Shown: piece after piece, positions 96-38,253 of the stretch
Layout: every line of letters starts with the position of its first letter
Numbering within the stretch: the stretch's first letter is position 1
DNA from: Candidatus Thalassarchaeaceae archaeon
GTDB lineage: Archaea; Thermoplasmatota; Poseidoniia; Poseidoniales; Thalassarchaeaceae
DNA length: 38,253 nucleotides
Assembly (NCBI GenBank): GCA_029250665.1
Contig: JAQXEV010000121.1
Coordinates: forward strand, 1-38,253
Reading direction: 5' to 3'
The notes under the pieces: generated by a model
The model's database searches: none
What the model was told of the DNA's origin: nothing
Seen by the model: the letters and a program-made list of their open reading frames with translations, nothing else
Made by a program: the position numbers and the translations under genes

Positions 96-172
96 TGGTG
101 GGCGATACAGGATTCGAACCCATGTCCTAGCGTCCGAAGCGCCAGATGATATCCAGACTACACCAATCGCCC
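96..172 (-). tRNA. tRNA-Arg (anticodon UCG), CCA encoded
   Basis: Read on the minus strand, a complete 74-nt cloverleaf is followed by an encoded CCA (96-98). The acceptor stem GGGCGAT pairs with ATCGCCC. The seven-base anticodon loop is CTTCGGA, giving anticodon UCG, which reads CGA. The T-loop is TTCGAAT. The anticodon stem pairs fully with one G-U. The D-stem is short and starts with GTGT. There is no intron. A T-rich stretch follows the CCA and could act as terminator. An AT-rich block near 194-204 sits at about the right distance upstream to be a TATA box. I see no supportable gene in bases 1-95, only a 6-bp inverted repeat at 22-39. Confidence 0.95.
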
Positions 173-2604: not shown

Positions 2605-4311
2605 TCACAGTAAGCTGCCGTCGTCTTCTTCCTCATCGAGGATTCCGTCGGCGTCATCGTCGTCATCGAGATGGTCTTCAATACCGTCATTGTCGTGGTC
2701 GAATTGACCTGTCAATGGGTTGCCATCATTCTGCTCGAACCAGTCGGAAAGTCCGTCGTTGTCGTCATCGGTGTCAGTCCTGTCAGTTAGACCATCGTTG
2801 TCGTGGTCGTACCTCCAGAGACCGATCGCGCCGTCGACCTCATCGACATCTAGGATGTCGTCGTTGTCGTCGTCGGGATCAACACCGTCATTCAGACCGT
2901 CGTTGTCGTGATCGCGTGAGTAATCCTCACCGTTCGGTCCAACGTCGTTCCAATTGTCGATGCCGTCATTGTCGATGTCGAAATCGATGTTATCGCGGAC
3001 GCCATCATTGTCGTGATCGTAGATGTCCGAGTTAGGGTCGCCGTCATTGACTTCCTCGCGGTCGTCGATTCCGTCGCCGTCATCGTCATCATCCTCAGCG
3101 TCATTGATGCCATCGTTGTCGTGGTCCTCAGGGAATTCATCCACATTGTCTGGGATGCCGTCCTGGTCATCATCGAAGTCCAGGTCGTCTGGGATACCAT
3201 CGCCATCGTTGTCGTTCTCGCCGTTCTGGTCTTGGTTGTCGAGCTGCTGGCTTTGCTGTTGGTCGGACTGCTGGCCCTGCTGACCCTGGTTATTATCCTG
3301 GGTCTGGCCTTGCTGCTGCTGGTTCTGTCCATTCTGGTTGTTACCGTTCTGGTCCTGCCCTTCCTGGTCGCCCTGCTGGCCGGATTGTTCTCCGCCCTGC
3401 TGCTGTCCTTGGCCGTTGTCTTGCTGGTTGGATTGTTCTCCACCCTCTTGACCGCTGCCTTGCTGACCGTCCTGACCGGACTGAGAGCCCTGGTCCTGAC
3501 CGTTGCCTTGCTGGCCGCCTTGACCTTGGCCTTGGTCGCCTTGACCTTGACCTTGGTCACCTTGACCTTGGCCTTGACCCTGGCCTTGACCTTGGCCTTG
3601 ACCTTGGCCTTGACCCTGGCCTTGACCTTGGCCTTGACCTTGGCCTTGACCTTGGCCTTGACCTTGGCCTTGACCTTGTCCTTGACCCTGACCTTGACCT
3701 TGACCTTGGCCTTGACCTTGGCCTTGACCTTGGCCTTGACCTTGGCCTTGACCTTGTCCTTGACCCTGGCCTTGACCTTGGCCTTGACCTTCGCCTTCTT
3801 GCTCGGAGTCTCCACCGCCGTCAGATCCGCCGTCGCCGGCTCCTTCTCCGTTGTCACCATAATCTGGATCGTACGCATCAGGGATACCGTCGCCATCCGA
3901 ATCCGACATCGATCCGTTGTTAGGATCGTTCGGGAACGGATCGCTGGCGTCATTCTGCCCGTCACCATCGGTGTCAGCCGAGTTGGGGTTAGTTCCAGAC
4001 GCGTACTCCTGAGAGTTCGTCAATCCGTCACCGTCAGGGTCCGCGTTAGCGTCACTGGCGGAATTCGGATCTAGTCCGTATCCAACTTCCCAACCGTCCG
4101 GCAGACCGTCGTTATCGGTGTCGGGGTTAGTGGGGTCCGTGCCTTCAGCTGTCTCCTCTGCGTTTGTCAGGCCGTCTCCGTCCCAATCGGCTCCTCCGTC
4201 GGAGGGGTCGAGTGGATCGGATCCATCGGCTTGTACACCGACGGAACCAGCCATCAACACTAGGAGCAGCGCAATCAGCATGCTCGTATTCTTTGTTTTC
4301 TGTATTTTCAT
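2605..4311 (-). CDS. Secreted Asp-rich (thrombospondin type 3-like) repeat protein with long Gly-Gln tract
   Basis: A 568-residue exported protein. Residues 1-27 form a signal peptide: basic start MKIQKTK, then a hydrophobic core. Mature repeats of the form DxDxDGxxD/N, as in calcium-binding thrombospondin type 3 modules, occupy about 30-165. An almost pure Gly-Gln tract spans about 174-257, then a Gln/Asn/Gly-rich stretch to about 365, then more Asp-rich repeats to the end. No C-terminal membrane anchor is visible. Calcium binding and a cell-surface or matrix role follow from the repeat type; the exact function is unknown. I start at ATG 4311 rather than an in-frame site 27 codons earlier, because the signal peptide begins there. 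The tract creates spurious open frames on both strands. Confidence 0.85.
   Translation of the reverse strand: MKIQKTKNTSMLIALLLVLMAGSVGVQADGSDPLDPSDGGADWDGDGLTNAEETAEGTDPTNPDTDNDGLPDGWEVGYGLDPNSASDANADPDGDGLTNSQEYASGTNPNSADTDGDGQNDASDPFPNDPNNGSMSDSDGDGIPDAYDPDYGDNGEGAGDGGSDGGGDSEQEGEGQGQGQGQGQGQGQGQGQGQGQGQGQGQGQGQGQGQGQGQGQGQGQGQGQGQGQGQGQGQGQGQGQGQGQGQGQGQGDQGQGQGDQGQGQGGQQGNGQDQGSQSGQDGQQGSGQEGGEQSNQQDNGQGQQQGGEQSGQQGDQEGQDQNGNNQNGQNQQQQGQTQDNNQGQQGQQSDQQQSQQLDNQDQNGENDNDGDGIPDDLDFDDDQDGIPDNVDEFPEDHDNDGINDAEDDDDDGDGIDDREEVNDGDPNSDIYDHDNDGVRDNIDFDIDNDGIDNWNDVGPNGEDYSRDHDNDGLNDGVDPDDDNDDILDVDEVDGAIGLWRYDHDNDGLTDRTDTDDDNDGLSDWFEQNDGNPLTGQFDHDNDGIEDHLDDDDDADGILDEEEDDGSLL
3556..3792 (-). repeat. 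12-bp tandem repeat encoding (Gly-Gln)n
   Basis: A minisatellite of the unit GGCCAAGGTCAA (minus strand) with a few synonymous variants (GGCCAGGGTCAA, GGACAAGGTCAA), repeated roughly twenty times without a frame break. Every substitution I see among units is silent, so the dipeptide is kept while the DNA has drifted. Length change in whole units would preserve the frame. Confidence 0.9.
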
Positions 4312-4339
4312 TTCTTTTTCACTTCCAAAAATAAGTTCA

Positions 4340-4356
4340 GAGAACCCGCCGTTCTC
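4340..4356 (-). promoter_or_regulatory. Inverted repeat GAGAAC-N5-GTTCTC in 5' leader
   Basis: Perfect 6-bp stem with a five-base loop, about 30 bp upstream of the repeat-protein start. It could be an mRNA hairpin or a dimeric regulator site. It differs by one base per arm from the GGGAAC palindrome at 4557-4573. Confidence 0.4.
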
Positions 4357-4433
4357 TCTTTCCAGCGAATGCTCGCGCTCATCCTCGCGCAAGACGATTC
4401 GTCCGGGAGTGAAGGATGCTGATTGGGAGCCTA

Positions 4434-33587: not shown

Positions 33588-36473
33588 TCATACGAATGCG
33601 ATACCTGGTTCGAGAGGGAAAGCTACCCTTGCCTTGCCACCGACATCCGCACCCTCACCAACCGGGTAAGCAACGACCGATTCGACGTCGAGAGCGGCAG
33701 CGATGAAATCTGCTGCCGCATTGATTACATCGCTCTCAGCCAAGCCGCTCATCACCAATTGCCTCTCACCGTCCGACCAGGTGTGAATCCTGCCTCTACG
33801 CTTCTTCGAGCCCATCGACAAGGCCATCCATGTCTGGAAAATCTCACCTCGCAGAGCCTCCTGAGCAAAAATCGGCAGCGACTTGAGATGATCCTGCCCC
33901 TGCCGCTTGAAATCGAATTCACTAGCAGCCAAGCCGACCGCTTCTCGAGCCAACTCGCCCTTCCAAGCTGCAGCAGTCTGAATCACAACTCCAGTAATTG
34001 GGGCATCAGAGTGGCGCTCGGCTAACCCACGTAGATTGCGGCCAGACTCGATCACCCCGCGCAAGTAAGCCTCGCGCGCGAGCACAGCAACATCAGCGGT
34101 AGTATCACCAGCCAAGTCGGATGAAGAAGAGTCGAATTCCATATCATGACTCGCGAGCATCTCATCCATCCCAAGCTCAGCCCAGAATTCCTCTGCAATG
34201 TGAGGTGTGGCCGGAGCCAACATTGGAGCCCAGCCGGCCAAGAATCGCCGCGCAGTGGCCCTATCAGCCCCGCCGCGGCGCAAATACCACTGCCAATCAG
34301 CAAGCATCTCGAAATGGCTCGTCATAACTCCCTCACGCAGGCTGACATCCTCCATACAAGCGTGCCATCGCGCCTGATTCACTCGCAGGCGAGCCAGCAA
34401 CCATCCATCCATAGGACCTGGAGCATCTTCTAACGCATTACCGGCATTGAAGGCGTCAATTATCGAACAGAGTTGTTTGTAATTTGCCAAAACTGCGTTG
34501 TCTGACCAGTCCATACCAGCCTCCGGATTCGCTCCAAAGAGAATGAAAAGACGCACCGTATCAGCTCCGAATTTTTCTATCATTTCGCCCGGACTTACCG
34601 TGTTACCGAGACTCTTGCTCATCTTCGCCGAACGCGAACTCAAACCTGCTCCACACGTCGGGCAATCGCCTCCAAAATTCTCGATGTGGTATTCCGTATT
34701 GCATTCAGAACAGAAAGGAGCGGGCGCGTTGAGCATGCCTTGGCAGACTAAGCGCCCGAAAGGCTCGCCGACCGTATTCATGCCGAGGTCGCGAGTCGCC
34801 TTGGTGAAGAAGCGGGCATACAGGAGATGCATGACGGCGTGCTCGATTCCTCCAATGTAGAGATCCACGCCGCCGTCTAGCCAGTAATCGACCGCTGCAC
34901 GGTCGAAAGGCTGCGCGTTGTTTGCAGAATCTGCGAAGCGCAGGAAATACCAAGATGAATCGTAGAAAGTGTCCATCGTATCGGTCTCCCGTCGAGCGGG
35001 ACCGTTGCACTGCGGACATGTTGCGGAGAGGAAGGATTCGCTAGCCGCAAGGGGATTGCCGCTCTCCTCCCAACTGAAAGTAACATCGAGAGGTAATTCG
35101 ACTGGGAGTTGTTCGTAAGGTACTGGCACAACTCCACACGCCTCACAGTGAAGCATTGGAATCGGCGTGCCCCAGAAGCGCTGTCGGCTTAGCAGCCAAT
35201 CTTTGAGCCGGTACTGAACGGTGCCTTGTCCGGCTCCCTCTGCCTCCAGCGCAGAAATCACCGCGGCCTTCGCTTCGTCACCAAACATCCCATCAAACTC
35301 AGCCCGTGTCGAATTGACCATCCAACCCAGACCGTCGAAAACGGGATTCTCCTCAACACCCTCGCCACCCTCTCGTCGAGACAAAACTGGCTTCACCGGA
35401 ATTCCATATTTCTTGGCAAAGTCGTAATCGCGCTGATCGTGCCCTGGCACAGCCATCACAGCCCCAGTTCCGTAACTGGCGACAACAAAGTTGCCAGCGT
35501 AGATTGGAACCTCTTCTCCGGTCAGCGGATTGATCGCGGAGCGACCGAGCGGAACACCCTTCTTTTCCTTCAGCATGTTGATTCGCTCGAACTCGGAAAG
35601 CTTGGCGCACTCATCAGCAAGAGTGCGCCATCCAGCCTCATACTCAGTCCCAGCAACAAGCGGCTCACAGAGCGGATGCTCGGGTGAGAGAGTTACAAAA
35701 GTCACGCCAAAAATCGTGTCGGGGCGTGTTGTAAACGCCCCAATAATAGCGTCCTCACCATTGACTTCGCCGGCAACAGGAAACTCGATTTGAGCGCCAT
35801 GAGAACGCCCAATCCAGTTCCGCTGCATCGCTTTCACATTCTCAGGGAACTCGATGTGGTCCAATTCATCGAGCAACTCATCGGCGTACTCGGTCATGCG
35901 TAGGAACCACTGAGCCATGTCCTTCTGAACGACCTCGAGACCACATCGCCAGCAGCGATTATTCTTCACCTGCTCATTGGCAAGTACGGTATCACAATCG
36001 TCGCACCAATTGACTGGAGCGAAGCGTCTCTCAACCAACCCAGCCTCATTGAAACGGAGGAAAAGTTCCTGATTCCAGTGATAATACTCAGGCGTCGACG
36101 TAGCGAAAGTCCTCCGCCAATCATACGAATATCCCATCCTTTCCTGATCAGCACGAATCATCACGATGTTACGCTCCGTCACGGAGTGCGGATGTCCGCC
36201 TTCCTTCTTCGCGGCATTTTCGGCTGGCATCCCGAAGGAATCGTAACCCATCGGATAGAGGACATTCTTGCCCATCAGACGTTGGAAGCGAGCCATGGCA
36301 TCGCCAATGGAGTAGTTGCGTACGTGACCCATGTGCATGTAGCCGGAGGGGTAAGGGAACATTTCGAGGCAGTAGAACTTCGGACGCGAATCATCGACTT
36401 CGGCTTCAAAGAAGCGCGCCTCTTGCCAGCGTGACTGCCAGCGCGTCTCGATATCTTGTGAATCGTATGCCAT
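33588..36473 (-). CDS. leuS: Leucyl-tRNA synthetase, bacterial type
   Basis: Charges tRNA-Leu. From ATG 36473 it has 961 residues. The class I signatures are HMGH (47-50) and KMSKS (about 615-619). PYPSGYMHMGHVRNYSIGD, CWRCGLEVVQKDMAQWF and GGIEHAVMHLLYARFF are all bacterial-type sequences; archaeal LeuRS has a different architecture. The editing domain (about 220-410) is present. Just before KMSKS lies a small zinc-ribbon-like insert, CSEC and CPTC about 18 residues apart. ATG 36476 is one codon upstream; GGGGTGAAG serves as ribosome site. In-frame TTG starts further upstream lie in the structured leader and are unlikely. Acquisition from bacteria is the probable origin. Confidence 0.96.
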   Translation of the reverse strand: MAYDSQDIETRWQSRWQEARFFEAEVDDSRPKFYCLEMFPYPSGYMHMGHVRNYSIGDAMARFQRLMGKNVLYPMGYDSFGMPAENAAKKEGGHPHSVTERNIVMIRADQERMGYSYDWRRTFATSTPEYYHWNQELFLRFNEAGLVERRFAPVNWCDDCDTVLANEQVKNNRCWRCGLEVVQKDMAQWFLRMTEYADELLDELDHIEFPENVKAMQRNWIGRSHGAQIEFPVAGEVNGEDAIIGAFTTRPDTIFGVTFVTLSPEHPLCEPLVAGTEYEAGWRTLADECAKLSEFERINMLKEKKGVPLGRSAINPLTGEEVPIYAGNFVVASYGTGAVMAVPGHDQRDYDFAKKYGIPVKPVLSRREGGEGVEENPVFDGLGWMVNSTRAEFDGMFGDEAKAAVISALEAEGAGQGTVQYRLKDWLLSRQRFWGTPIPMLHCEACGVVPVPYEQLPVELPLDVTFSWEESGNPLAASESFLSATCPQCNGPARRETDTMDTFYDSSWYFLRFADSANNAQPFDRAAVDYWLDGGVDLYIGGIEHAVMHLLYARFFTKATRDLGMNTVGEPFGRLVCQGMLNAPAPFCSECNTEYHIENFGGDCPTCGAGLSSRSAKMSKSLGNTVSPGEMIEKFGADTVRLFILFGANPEAGMDWSDNAVLANYKQLCSIIDAFNAGNALEDAPGPMDGWLLARLRVNQARWHACMEDVSLREGVMTSHFEMLADWQWYLRRGGADRATARRFLAGWAPMLAPATPHIAEEFWAELGMDEMLASHDMEFDSSSSDLAGDTTADVAVLAREAYLRGVIESGRNLRGLAERHSDAPITGVVIQTAAAWKGELAREAVGLAASEFDFKRQGQDHLKSLPIFAQEALRGEIFQTWMALSMGSKKRRGRIHTWSDGERQLVMSGLAESDVINAAADFIAAALDVESVVAYPVGEGADVGGKARVAFPLEPGIAFV

Positions 36474-36482
36474 CATCTTCAC

Positions 36483-36660
36483 CCCATTCAAAATGGGAGC
36501 CCTCTCAGGCTCCCAAGCTAAGCAGCAGGCCGAGCGAATCGCCCGCCGCGAAGGTTGGTGAAGCAGGCATTCGCGCCATGCGCGAGCGTCATGCCACCTC
36601 GCTTTCAATGCACCCCCGAGAAAATGAGGAAATTCCGACGGTTGGCAGCAATTCGATCCT
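36483..36660 (-). promoter_or_regulatory. Structured leader of leuS with alternative hairpins
   Basis: Roughly 180 nt of transcribed leader. From 5' to 3' on the minus strand it holds a compound hairpin (36566-36595: outer GGCAT/ATGCC, inner TCGCGC-CAT-GCGCGA), an 8-bp hairpin TGGGAGCC-N6-GGCTCCCA (36494-36515), and a 6-bp hairpin CCCATT-TTG-AATGGG (36483-36497). The last two overlap and cannot form together. The final one buries the GGGG of the ribosome site. This is the layout of an on/off translational switch. The controlling signal is unknown. Confidence 0.5.
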
Positions 36661-36692: not shown

Positions 36693-36871
36693 ATTTCCCC
36701 TCAGGAACGCCTAAGTGTTAAATAAGAGAGATGAAAATTAACAAAACACTGAGAGTGAGAATGGTGATTAAGCACAAAATAACAAGGAGGGATCGATTTC
36801 GCCCGAGTAGATTCTTCCTCTGTTTCGGAATCTGACTCTGCTTGGTCTGAATCATTCGACCAAGATAAATT
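36693..36871. other. AT-rich spacer at the edge of the terminal island
   Basis: No supported gene. TTAAATAAG (36718-36726) is a possible plus-strand TATA box. A 34-codon basic frame (36731-36835) follows but lacks a ribosome site. A strong Shine-Dalgarno AAGGAGG (36784-36790) has no start codon at a proper distance. An inverted repeat CGACCAA-GATAAA-TTGGTCG (36857-36876) has its right arm in the tRNA acceptor. These look like remnants of broken genes. Confidence 0.5.
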
Positions 36872-36948
36872 GGTCGTATGGTGTAATAGGATTAGCATAG
36901 TTGTCTGCGAAGCTTCAGATTCCGGTTCGAATCCGGATACGACCACCA
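36872..36948 (+). tRNA. tRNA-Arg-like gene (anticodon GCG by position), weak anticodon stem
   Basis: A 74-nt cloverleaf with encoded CCA (36946-36948). Acceptor GGTCGTA pairs with TACGACC, the T-arm TCCGG-TTCGAAT-CCGGA is perfect, and the D-arm starts GTGT with GG in the loop. By length the anticodon loop is CTGCGAA, giving GCG, which would read CGC. The stem around it, GTTGT against GCTTC, has two T-T mismatches and one wobble. It may be a decayed or element-borne tRNA, or one with a non-standard fold. It lies 28 bp before the GNAT gene. Confidence 0.7.
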
Positions 36949-36976
36949 TTTATACAATACAAAAGGAGATATGAAA

Positions 36977-37402
36977 ATGCAACAACAAACACATGAGAGA
37001 AAGCAAGTAAACGAGAGTAAGCCACCTGCAGTGACGCACAGAGAGTGGTTCTCCCCAGTTGGCTCCAAACCAGGCTGGTTCAACTTCACGAAGTTCTTTC
37101 CTTACGCTATTTGCAGAGTGATACCCGACGGAGACGACATCGAGATCCACAATGTTAGCGTGATAAATCCCGAGATGAGGAGGCAGGGAATAGGAACTAA
37201 AATGATTCGACACATTAGGGAGGCCTTTCCGCATCACCACATATGGGCGGACACATGGAACCACTCTCGGCCGTTCTGGAAGGCGATGGTGAAAGCAGGA
37301 TTTGTTGACTCTATTGAGAATGAATATAGTTGGCCTTGTCATGATACAAATTGCGAAACCTGTCATCCGACAAGAGTTACTGGAAGGAGGCGAAGACTAT
37401 GA
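36977..37402 (+). CDS. GNAT-fold acetyltransferase-like protein with Cys/His tail
   Basis: A 141-residue protein. Residues about 58-112 match the acetyl-CoA-binding part of GNAT enzymes: a beta strand VSVINPEMR, the pyrophosphate loop RRQGIGTKM (68-76), then an aromatic-rich segment FWKAMVKAGFV. The tail has C121-H-x3-C126-x2-C129-H130, a possible zinc site, and ends in RRRR. The substrate is unknown. ATG 36977 is eight bases from AAGGAG; ATG 36971 is too close. Ten of thirteen arginine codons are AGA or AGG, unlike the ribosomal genes here. Its stop overlaps the next gene's start as ATGA. Confidence 0.75.
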   Translation: MQQQTHERKQVNESKPPAVTHREWFSPVGSKPGWFNFTKFFPYAICRVIPDGDDIEIHNVSVINPEMRRQGIGTKMIRHIREAFPHHHIWADTWNHSRPFWKAMVKAGFVDSIENEYSWPCHDTNCETCHPTRVTGRRRRL

Positions 37403-38118
37403 GCGACGAGGCCTACAACCCTGTGGAACACATCGATTGGGAATTGGTAGACAAGGACCACACCTTTGAGTGGTTAGTTCATCTCTGCGAAGTTTTCAAC
37501 AGGAATGAGGAAACAGACGATTGGGCTATTTGGCCAGAGGATTTTTTGTGGCACCCACATCAAATTTCTATACCAGAGGAACACAGACAGATGTGGTTGA
37601 ATGTAATTTTCCTCATATTCAATAAACATGAGATAACCATCTCTGGCAATAAAATATCAGTGATTGGAAAGTTTGGCTCAGAATTCAAGTTTGAAATGAT
37701 GCCAGACCTCTCTGACTGGGTTGGAATTGAGCATCCACAAGGAGCCAACTGCATTCCTGAGCAGATGGGCTTAGATGACGGGAGTTACATCCCAGACGGT
37801 TTCGAGTTGTGCTGGGATTGTCCCGAGGGTATCCCCACGCCTGTCGGCCTTTACAGCCTGATTATAGCGCTACTCGACGAGACCAAGGCTTGGGAGTACC
37901 TGCTCTCTTGGCGTTTTGTCGAGTGCTGGATATGCCGTGATAACCGCCCCATGCAAAGGCAAGAATTCGAGCGTGTAGGATGGATGTACAGCGACGAGGA
38001 ATCATCTGCCATCCCCGCTTATTCAAGGATTCTGGGCTCGCTCGACAAACGTCCGCGGTCCCCCGGCCCTTACTACTGCTGTTGGTGGTGCGGGCCCAAC
38101 GCCCCTGATCATCATTGA
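37399..38118 (+). CDS. Trp- and CxxC-rich hypothetical protein
   Basis: I do not recognise this 239-residue protein. It is acidic and unusually rich in tryptophan. Three CxxC pairs (C138/C141, C176/C179, C228/C231), all with a Trp next to or inside the pair, lie in the C-terminal half and could bind zinc. No membrane helix or signal peptide is evident. ATG 37399 overlaps the GNAT stop and has GGAGG eight bases upstream; an in-frame start 16 codons earlier is less likely. Tight overlap suggests the two proteins are made together and may interact. Confidence 0.7.
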   Translation: MSDEAYNPVEHIDWELVDKDHTFEWLVHLCEVFNRNEETDDWAIWPEDFLWHPHQISIPEEHRQMWLNVIFLIFNKHEITISGNKISVIGKFGSEFKFEMMPDLSDWVGIEHPQGANCIPEQMGLDDGSYIPDGFELCWDCPEGIPTPVGLYSLIIALLDETKAWEYLLSWRFVECWICRDNRPMQRQEFERVGWMYSDEESSAIPAYSRILGSLDKRPRSPGPYYCCWWCGPNAPDHH

Positions 38119-38147
38119 AAGACAAACGCAATGGTCGCGTTTCTTTC
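38117..38147 (+). terminator. Stem-loop terminator of the island operon
   Basis: GAAAG-AC-AAACGC, a seven-base loop, then GCGTTT-CTTTC: an 11-bp stem with a 2-nt bulge, beginning inside the stop codon of the preceding gene. The distal arm is T-rich. Confidence 0.5.
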
Positions 38148-38192
38148 GTCCAATCGCGCAAAATTTGAATCCAATAACCAACTGTGCATCGC

Positions 38193-38253
38193 ATGGAGTC
38201 ATCGGAGCGAGTCCGAACCTTCCTTCGGAACTTATGGGGGGAGATAGACAATA
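38193..38253 (+). CDS. Possible start of a gene cut by the window end
   Basis: An open frame from ATG 38193 to the window end (MESSERVRTF...). An AT-rich block AAAATTTGAAT about 25-35 bp upstream could be a TATA box for a leaderless transcript. Too short to identify. Confidence 0.3.
   Translation, partial: MESSERVRTFLRNLWGEIDN

What the first reader, a model, noticed from the sequence alone, without database searches (positions are those of the whole stretch)
36693..38253. Foreign island with tRNA-like gene and a two-gene overlapping operon
Seen: AT-richer DNA, AGA/AGG-biased arginine codons and more ATA codons, strong bacterial-style Shine-Dalgarno sites, an orphan AAGGAGG site, and two overlapping genes ending in a hairpin terminator. 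Neither protein belongs to a known pathway of the neighbouring genes. tRNA genes are common integration sites. It may be the edge of a virus- or plasmid-derived element continuing past the window.
Basis: partly seen in the sequence, partly recalled or inferred. Interest (0 to 1): 0.55.

Follow-up and report, generated by a model that had tools for sequence, protein, structure and literature searches.

The report
tRNA-led operon avoiding CGN arginine codons
The end of this marine-archaeal contig holds part of a gene set in which extra arginine tRNAs sit in front of genes that almost never use the codons those tRNAs read, which suggests a system that interferes with the reading of those codons while sparing itself.

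Summary
The window (G000:C35, order Poseidoniales) ends in a truncated copy of a cassette. In relatives it usually runs tRNA-Arg(UCG or ACG), tRNA-Arg(GCG), sometimes GNAT, one to three copies of an unknown gene (G2), a papain/C39-like gene and a methyltransferase-fold gene. The C39-like marker is in 71 of 318 Poseidoniales genomes. Of 69 loci with upstream sequence, 67 have such a tRNA-Arg just in front; the two exceptions show only a C39-like gene. The tRNAs are additional to the host's own.

Cassette genes avoid CGN, the codons the tRNAs read: 60 of 2631 arginine codons, and 0 of 866 at conserved arginine columns. Flanking genes average about 70% CGN. Cassette GC3 follows the host (r = 0.86), so donor composition does not explain this.

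But the tRNA does not look like an integration site, and no viral relative was found. The window copy is atypical: 9 of 23 arginine codons are CGN. Best explanation: a self-exempting module acting on CGN-decoding tRNA-Arg; the mechanism is inferred.

The parts
36872..36948 (+). tRNA-Arg(GCG) with encoded CCA. Acceptor and T stems are fully paired; the anticodon stem (GTTGT/GCTTC) has two U.U mismatches, a recurrent feature of the family
36971..37402 (+). GNAT-family acetyltransferase gene (143 aa from 36971; ATG at 36977 suits the Shine-Dalgarno site better); 10 of 13 Arg codons are AGR
   Evidence: Pfam PF00583 25.8 bits, cut-off 20.7; alignment A4 with 16 cassette relatives, 31-55% identity; profile matches RibT and other acetyltransferases in PDB; codons
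37399..38118 (+). G2b gene, 239 aa, function unknown, C-terminal Cys-rich probable zinc ribbon; 4-nt overlap with the GNAT gene; 4 of 10 Arg codons AGR
   Evidence: no Pfam or PHROG; relatives L117:6534-7229 (31%) and L044:12662-13357 (26%); no PDB fold match at E <= 0.001
38117..38147 (+). hairpin after the second gene, terminator doubtful
   Evidence: z -1.12; not flagged
33588..36476 (-). leuS, left host flank of the cassette (start at 36476)
   Evidence: orthologue in 12 of 17 congeners; cassette absent beside it in 11 of 11 with sequence
96..172 (-). the host's own tRNA-Arg(UCG), unrelated to the cassette (54 positions identical in a global alignment with the 74-nt cassette tRNA)

Best explanation
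The window ends in a truncated copy of a Poseidoniales accessory cassette: one or two dedicated tRNA-Arg genes that read CGN, followed closely by genes that use AGA/AGG almost only. Shown: the largely fixed order, the tRNAs being extra and distinct from the host's, and the avoidance of CGN codons that composition does not explain. Inferred: an activity of the cassette (the C39-like cysteine enzyme, the methyltransferase-like protein, G2 and, where present, GNAT) removes, modifies or occupies the NCG-anticodon tRNA-Arg pool, when triggered, so that CGN-rich host or viral mRNAs stall. The cassette mRNAs, nearly free of CGN, are still translated, and the cassette's own divergent tRNAs act as replacement, decoy or dedicated substrate. 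That would make it a defence-like or toxin/antidote-like module that exempts itself by codon choice. The window copy (one tRNA, 9 of 23 arginine codons CGN, no C39-like gene found in the held genome) looks derived or relaxed.
For: A tRNA-Arg reading CGN in front in 67 of 69 loci with upstream sequence; the gap to the first gene is at most 100 nt in 61 of 67. CGT, CGA, CGC and CGG are the four most depleted of 59 synonymous codons over 47 loci (log2 odds -4.0, -4.0, -3.2, -1.8; next CTC -0.6), and NCG codons are not depleted, so it is not CpG avoidance. Pooled 60 CGN of 2631 Arg codons without the window, the two C39-only loci and the ZN family. Conserved Arg columns: 0 CGN of 866 while AGA and AGG interchange in 17 of 18 columns; conserved Leu columns of the C39-like and P5 families use TTR and CTN freely. 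AGR at least 0.9 in 122 of 177 cassette ORFs against 1 of 282 flank ORFs. GC3 tracks the host, r = 0.86, while AGR stays 0.82-1.0 in 51 loci. Control: the two C39-only loci have 19 of 28 CGN. Host-type tRNA-Arg(UCG) and (GCG) both remain in G000 and, by pattern, in 5 of 6 cassette-bearing relatives searched. In the cassette GCG tRNA the anticodon stem and loop flanks are the most divergent regions measured, while acceptor and T stems stay paired in 47 of 49. C39-like Gln39, Cys44 and His135 are invariant in 18 of 18. Methyltransferase fold of P5.
Against: No nuclease or known toxin was recognised: PADLOC gave only one weak hit for 8 proteins (E 0.059) and G2 has no fold match. No gene but the tRNA is in nearly every locus: GNAT was found in 28 of 73, G2 in 68, P5 in 59, though many contigs are cut. 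The two GNAT relatives scanned did not pass Pfam. No expression or biochemical data exist. Of 7 flank genes scanned, 5 are housekeeping-type and 2 unknown, none a defence gene. The window's own genes break the rule. The cassette tRNAs keep the anticodon and, nearly always, A20, so they may simply be working decoders; the UCG set's most divergent stem is also the anticodon stem. Rows are related, so counts are not independent events.
Confidence: 0.42

Rival explanations
1. Arginyl-tRNA-dependent biosynthesis: the cassette tRNAs are dedicated Arg donors for a transferase that makes or modifies a peptide or protein; the methyltransferase-like and C39-like proteins tailor or process it. Cassette genes avoid CGN because the pathway drains that tRNA pool.
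For: Enzyme-like set (GNAT, C39-like, methyltransferase fold). The tRNAs keep A20 in nearly all rows, the NCG anticodon, and A or G at 73 in 111 of 113, with the 1-72 pair and anticodon stem drifting in the GCG set; these are, from recall, the ArgRS identity positions.
Against: No carrier peptide or synthetase-like gene was recognised; the GNAT is in only 28 of 73 loci; I recall no such pathway that encodes its own tRNA.
Confidence: 0.2
2. The operon is tuned to be translated when arginine or CGN isoacceptor charging is low, and its tRNAs merely boost supply; it is a starvation-response operon.
For: CGN avoidance with CGN-reading tRNAs in front. Codon choice robust to starvation is an established idea (recalled).
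Against: Avoidance is near-total rather than graded, and no arginine-metabolism gene was recognised among the cassette genes scanned.
Confidence: 0.12
3. The tRNAs themselves are the effectors: mischarged, poorly decoding or otherwise aberrant CGN readers that corrupt CGN translation, while cassette genes avoid the damage.
For: GCG tRNAs have at least one anticodon-stem mismatch in 23 of 49 or 17 of 32 unique rows, non-U33 in 3 of 49 (L136, L146, L152) and variable position 38; 1-72 pairs are A-U 17, U-A 15, C-G 9, G-C 6 of 49; 8 tRNAs bear ACG, unusual for archaea (recalled).
Against: The UCG/ACG tRNAs look canonical (61 of 64 with perfect anticodon stems). ArgRS identity positions are kept. 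Constitutive expression would harm a CGN-using host.
Confidence: 0.1
4. One reading: edge of an integrated virus or plasmid with donor codon usage, integrated at a tRNA gene.
For: Lower GC and AGR bias; absent at this site in 11 of 11 congeners with sequence there.
Against: In relatives GC3 follows the host but Arg codons do not. The tRNAs are extras. No att-like repeat in 37 of 37. No relatives in the viral scans or, for the C39-like protein, in phages and plasmids. Mostly vertical tree.
Confidence: 0.05

Closest known systems
Phage-borne tRNAs proposed to counter anticodon nucleases (VapC, PrrC, colicin D/E5), PMC10264068 (abstract and outline seen)
   Same: Extra tRNAs on accessory DNA whose anticodon-loop region diverges; link to depletion of specific tRNAs (colicin D as the tRNA-Arg case is recalled)
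   Different: Here the tRNAs head a chromosomal archaeal operon, and the operon's own genes avoid the matching codons; no phage relatives found
Mycobacterial MazF toxin that targets tRNA-Lys and reprogrammes the proteome by codon, PMC7033543 (search listing: title and start of abstract)
   Same: Codon-dependent translation interference; that messages lacking the codon escape is recalled
   Different: No MazF-like gene recognised; arginine CGN rather than lysine; tRNAs encoded in the module
GNAT toxins of the TacT type (recalled)
   Same: A small GNAT gene in an accessory operon, with aminoacyl-tRNA as possible substrate
   Different: GNAT in only 28 of 73 loci; no antitoxin-like partner recognised
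CreTA, CRISPR-repressed RNA toxin that sequesters a tRNA, PMC8501985 (search listing: title and start of abstract)
   Same: Archaeal and bacterial module acting through a tRNA; the rare tRNA-Arg case is from recall
   Different: No small RNA or CRISPR part was looked for or seen here; the cassette tRNAs read CGN, not AGA

Membership tests
tRNA-integrated mobile element | repeat of the tRNA 3' end at the far side of the element | tested here: not met
   no exact repeat of 14 nt or more from the last 30 nt in 37 of 37 loci with at least 4 kb downstream; the window itself cannot be tested past its end
tRNA-integrated mobile element | the tRNA is the host's own gene used as attachment site | tested here: not met
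   host-type tRNA-Arg(UCG) and (GCG) exist elsewhere in G000 and in 5 of 6 cassette-bearing relatives searched by pattern (G036 showed only GCG)
tRNA-integrated mobile element | integrase gene in the element | tested here: inconclusive
   cassette genes scanned have no integrase Pfam hit; only 7 flank genes were scanned; the window contig ends
known anti-phage defence systems in PADLOC 2.0.0 | match to a PADLOC model | tested here: not met
   8 proteins, one weak hit (CorA-like, E 0.059)
GNAT acetyltransferase family | Pfam GNAT domain above gathering score | tested here: met
   PF00583 25.8 bits, cut-off 20.7 (window protein). Two relatives did not reach it
TacT-type toxin-antitoxin | adjacent antitoxin gene | tested here: inconclusive
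   no antitoxin-like Pfam hit among the neighbours scanned; a new antitoxin type is not excluded
Peptidase C39-like | Pfam C39_2 above gathering score | tested here: not met
   12.8 bits, cut-off 24 (one member scanned)
papain/C39-like enzyme | invariant Gln, Cys and His of the active-site pattern | tested here: met
   Q39, C44 and H135 invariant in 18 rows; their assignment as catalytic is by recall, and no structure was predicted
class I SAM methyltransferase | fold | tested here: inconclusive
   model pTM 0.84; the 44 Foldseek matches at E <= 0.001 are methyltransferases by title or recall, but TM-scores to the query are 0.14-0.20 and best Z is 8.4 over residues 19-236, which the tool calls middling
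class I SAM methyltransferase | SAM binding and activity | not testable with these tools
   no GxGxG motif was seen by eye in A3
CreTA | CRISPR-regulated RNA toxin sequestering a tRNA | not tested
   no small-RNA toxin or CRISPR search was made here

The most novel reading that the evidence does not exclude
A codon-partitioned translational-interference system in archaea: a stable operon carries its own CGN-reading tRNA-Arg genes, possibly as effectors or decoys, disables or rewrites CGN decoding in the rest of the cell or in an invading virus, and exempts itself because its genes have been kept nearly free of CGN codons across Poseidoniales.
Probability: 0.3. Interest if true: 0.92.

Novelty: categorically new. 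Interest (0 to 1): 0.74.

Why it matters
Something has kept one codon box out of an operon whose leading tRNA genes read exactly that box, across genera whose GC content differs widely. That points to a conflict over decoding. If confirmed, it would be a kind of defence or conflict module for uncultured marine archaea, and a clean test case for codon choice as self-immunity. It also gives a search rule, accessory operons with tRNA genes and avoidance of the matching codons, that can be run on any genome.

Tried and rejected
Virus or plasmid origin: IMG/VR scans with GNAT, G2b, the C39-like protein and alignments A2 (C39-like), A3 (P5), A4 (GNAT) found no relatives; phages and plasmids none for the C39-like protein, the only one tried. 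Foldseek of P5 against BFVD gave low-TM hits, the named ones mostly methyltransferases.

Decay of the window tRNA as the cause of its mismatched anticodon stem: rejected as sole cause, since 23 of 49 cassette GCG tRNAs have at least one such mismatch (17 of 32 unique rows). One row (L118) is mis-parsed and was left in those counts; it accounts for the row with 3 anticodon-stem mismatches and poor acceptor and T stems, and probably for one of the three non-U33 rows. A direct recount gives non-U33 in 3 of 49 rows.

CpG avoidance: rejected, NCG codons are not depleted; C|G across codon junctions is 0.87 of expectation in cassettes, not compared with flanks. Donor composition: rejected by GC3.

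The far side of the insertion in G000: contig C38 ends in a thioredoxin-like lipoprotein gene (named by eye) followed by the gene that follows leuS in congeners, with no tRNA and no convincing cassette sequence; one short weak match to an ORF of L170 (E 0.002) was not followed. That it adjoins C35 is likely but not shown.

G2 structure: pLDDT 67, no match at E <= 0.001. Sequence searches of PDB with A1-A3 gave only weak hits; the best, Rpo13 for A1 at E 0.007, was not followed. A4 matched acetyltransferases.

Rows left out of counts: the window and the two C39-only loci (L116, L120) from pooled cassette codon counts and; the ZN family, because its ORF calls often run into other frames (pooled AGR 0.81); 12 ORFs inside cassettes that match no family (mean AGR 0.37), many probably not genes. 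Searches used less strictly trimmed ORFs and give the same picture (mean AGR 0.92, 0.90). In one search the one locus not higher than its flank was L116, whose downstream side is cut by the contig end. ARAGORN missed at least one second tRNA (L046), seen by pattern.

Paper searches listed nothing on such a cassette in the rows shown; one paper was opened (PMC10264068, abstract and outline).

After the filing check I recounted. Changed: 67 of 67 became 67 of 69, 'fixed order' became 'largely fixed', and P5's fold went to inconclusive. The corrected report was first sent in a wrong format and is sent again here.

Full report
What is there. The window is contig C35 of a 1.48 Mb genome in 126 contigs, 91% complete, and the contig stops at the window's end. 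Its order is Poseidoniales: a same-order contig, G046:C9 of 98,063 bases, has the length of CASIAW010000009.1, titled Candidatus Poseidoniaceae archaeon. Right of leuS lie tRNA-Arg(GCG) with CCA, a GNAT gene and an unknown Cys-rich gene, G2b, overlapping by 4 nt, then 135 bases. GC, AGR and ATA biases are real. The terminator is not above chance and the orphan Shine-Dalgarno site carries no weight.

Locus. Of 17 congeners, 12 give the leuS orthologue. In the 11 with sequence upstream of it there is no tRNA within 1500 nt and no cassette gene, and the same gene follows by eye, metallo-beta-lactamase-like by Pfam in the copy tested. So the island is an insertion here. None of the 17 congeners (57-93% complete) has a match to either protein.

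Relatives. The first 8 loci in other genera all held tRNA-Arg genes. A C39-like protein that follows G2 in most of those loci served as marker: 71 of 318 genomes of the order, one match each, some of them fragments at contig ends, and 32 of 389 in a phylum sample, all 32 of the same order. With G039 and the window this gives 73 loci. The usual order is tRNA-Arg(UCG/ACG), tRNA-Arg(GCG), GNAT (28 of 73), G2 (68, one to three copies), small ZN gene (41), C39-like (68), P5 (59), S93 (11); many contigs are cut. Exceptions: GNAT follows G2 in L047, L160, L161 and L163, and in L117 and L044 a G2b copy comes after the C39-like gene. In the window G2b follows GNAT directly, so no C39-like gene lies between them. 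Of the 73 loci, 67 have a CGN-reading tRNA-Arg upstream, at most 100 nt from the first gene in 61; 4 begin within 132 nt of a contig end; 2 (L116, L120) have upstream sequence, no such tRNA and no other cassette gene. Neighbours mostly differ between genera and are often shared within one (6 of 6 in g14), though g12 and g13 share some on both sides. The C39-like tree needs 11 changes for 11 genus groups, minimum 10: mostly vertical descent with losses; g15, g4 and g12 are not single groups.

tRNAs are cargo. All 113 tRNA-Arg genes found on the cassette strand read CGN: 56 UCG, 8 ACG, 49 GCG. G000 has its own tRNA-Arg UCG, GCG, UCU and CCU. A pattern search in 12 genomes found host-type UCG and GCG genes in 5 of 6 cassette-bearing relatives (G020, G037, G043, G046, G047); G036 showed only GCG. 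No repeat of the tRNA 3' end was found downstream in 37 of 37 loci. Seven flank genes gave no integrase: five housekeeping-type, two without Pfam hit. Parsing the tRNAs: UCG/ACG have perfect acceptor stems in 64 of 64 and anticodon stems in 61 of 64. GCG keep acceptor and T stems in 47 of 49 each, with compensatory change even at pair 1-72, but have an anticodon-stem mismatch in 23 of 49, the window's among them. Among unique rows (32 GCG, 33 UCG/ACG) the anticodon stem (0.56) and loop flanks (0.51) are the most divergent regions measured in the GCG set, against 0.35 and 0.25 in the UCG/ACG set, where the anticodon stem is also highest.

Codon avoidance. Cassette genes use AGA/AGG for arginine whatever the host does. 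The four CGN codons are the four most depleted of 59 codons across 47 loci. The trimmed count is 60 CGN of 2631, or 51 of 1978 in the 51 loci with measurable flanks. In G043, where flanking genes are 4% AGR, GNAT, C39-like and G2b genes are 27 of 27 AGR. At conserved Arg columns of the C39-like, P5 and GNAT families 0 of 866 codons are CGN although AGA and AGG interchange in 17 of 18 columns; conserved Leu columns of the first two use both codon boxes freely (G2 has no conserved Arg column). Fourfold GC3 follows the host with r = 0.86. Per ORF, AGR is at least 0.9 in 122 of 177 cassette ORFs and 1 of 282 flank ORFs. The two C39-only loci are 19 of 28 CGN. Caveats: ORFs are mechanical with trimmed starts, rows are related, and AGR to CGN needs a transversion while the Leu comparison is a transition.

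Proteins. The window GNAT passes Pfam; two relatives do not. The C39-like protein is below Pfam's cut-off but keeps Q39, C44 and H135 in 18 of 18 rows. P5 models well (pLDDT 84, pTM 0.84) and its best PDB matches are methyltransferases, at low TM and middling Z. G2 stays unknown. PADLOC finds nothing convincing for 8 proteins.

Interpretation. tRNAs that read CGN and genes that avoid CGN, kept together, imply that CGN decoding is at stake when the cassette acts. I favour a self-exempting module that disables or occupies NCG-anticodon tRNA-Arg, for defence or as a toxin/antidote pair. An Arg-tRNA-dependent pathway, a starvation-tuned operon or tRNAs acting as effectors are not excluded. The window copy has one tRNA and 9 of 23 CGN, and no C39-like gene was found in the held genome, so it is truncated or relaxed; the functional argument rests on its relatives.

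Noticed in passing
window 36477-36640, minus strand: The 5' leader of leuS looks strongly conserved by eye in congeners (L181-L188) and ends in a terminator-like hairpin with a T run just before leuS (36494-36515); the folded part (36488-36620) has z -2.06 and there is no Rfam match. Candidate regulatory leader.
   Followed up: partly
L045, L124, L130, L131, L143, L154, L164, L165: Eight cassette tRNA-Arg genes have anticodon ACG, unusual for archaea (recalled); which codons they read is open.
   Followed up: no
L048:4660-5730, L050:13726-14832 and others: A T5orf172 (GIY-YIG-like) gene, Pfam-tested in these two, lies on the opposite strand just after the cassette in several g12 and g13 genomes; its arginine codons are not AGR-only (for example 0.10 in L048, 0.52 in L050).
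   Followed up: partly
G000:C38 end (L199): Probable right flank of the insertion: a small thioredoxin-like lipoprotein gene (by eye), then the gene that follows leuS in congeners.
   Followed up: partly
L116 (G028): A C39-like gene without cassette tRNAs lies about 300-350 nt from a tRNA-Arg(GCG) of different sequence on the other strand.
   Followed up: no
G020:C6:476-516: A further UCG-type tRNA-Arg match outside the cassette and unlike the host UCG gene.
   Followed up: no
window 2605-4392, minus strand: Long acidic ORF with a run of Gly-Gln repeats between Asp-rich repeats; strong AT skew there.
   Followed up: no
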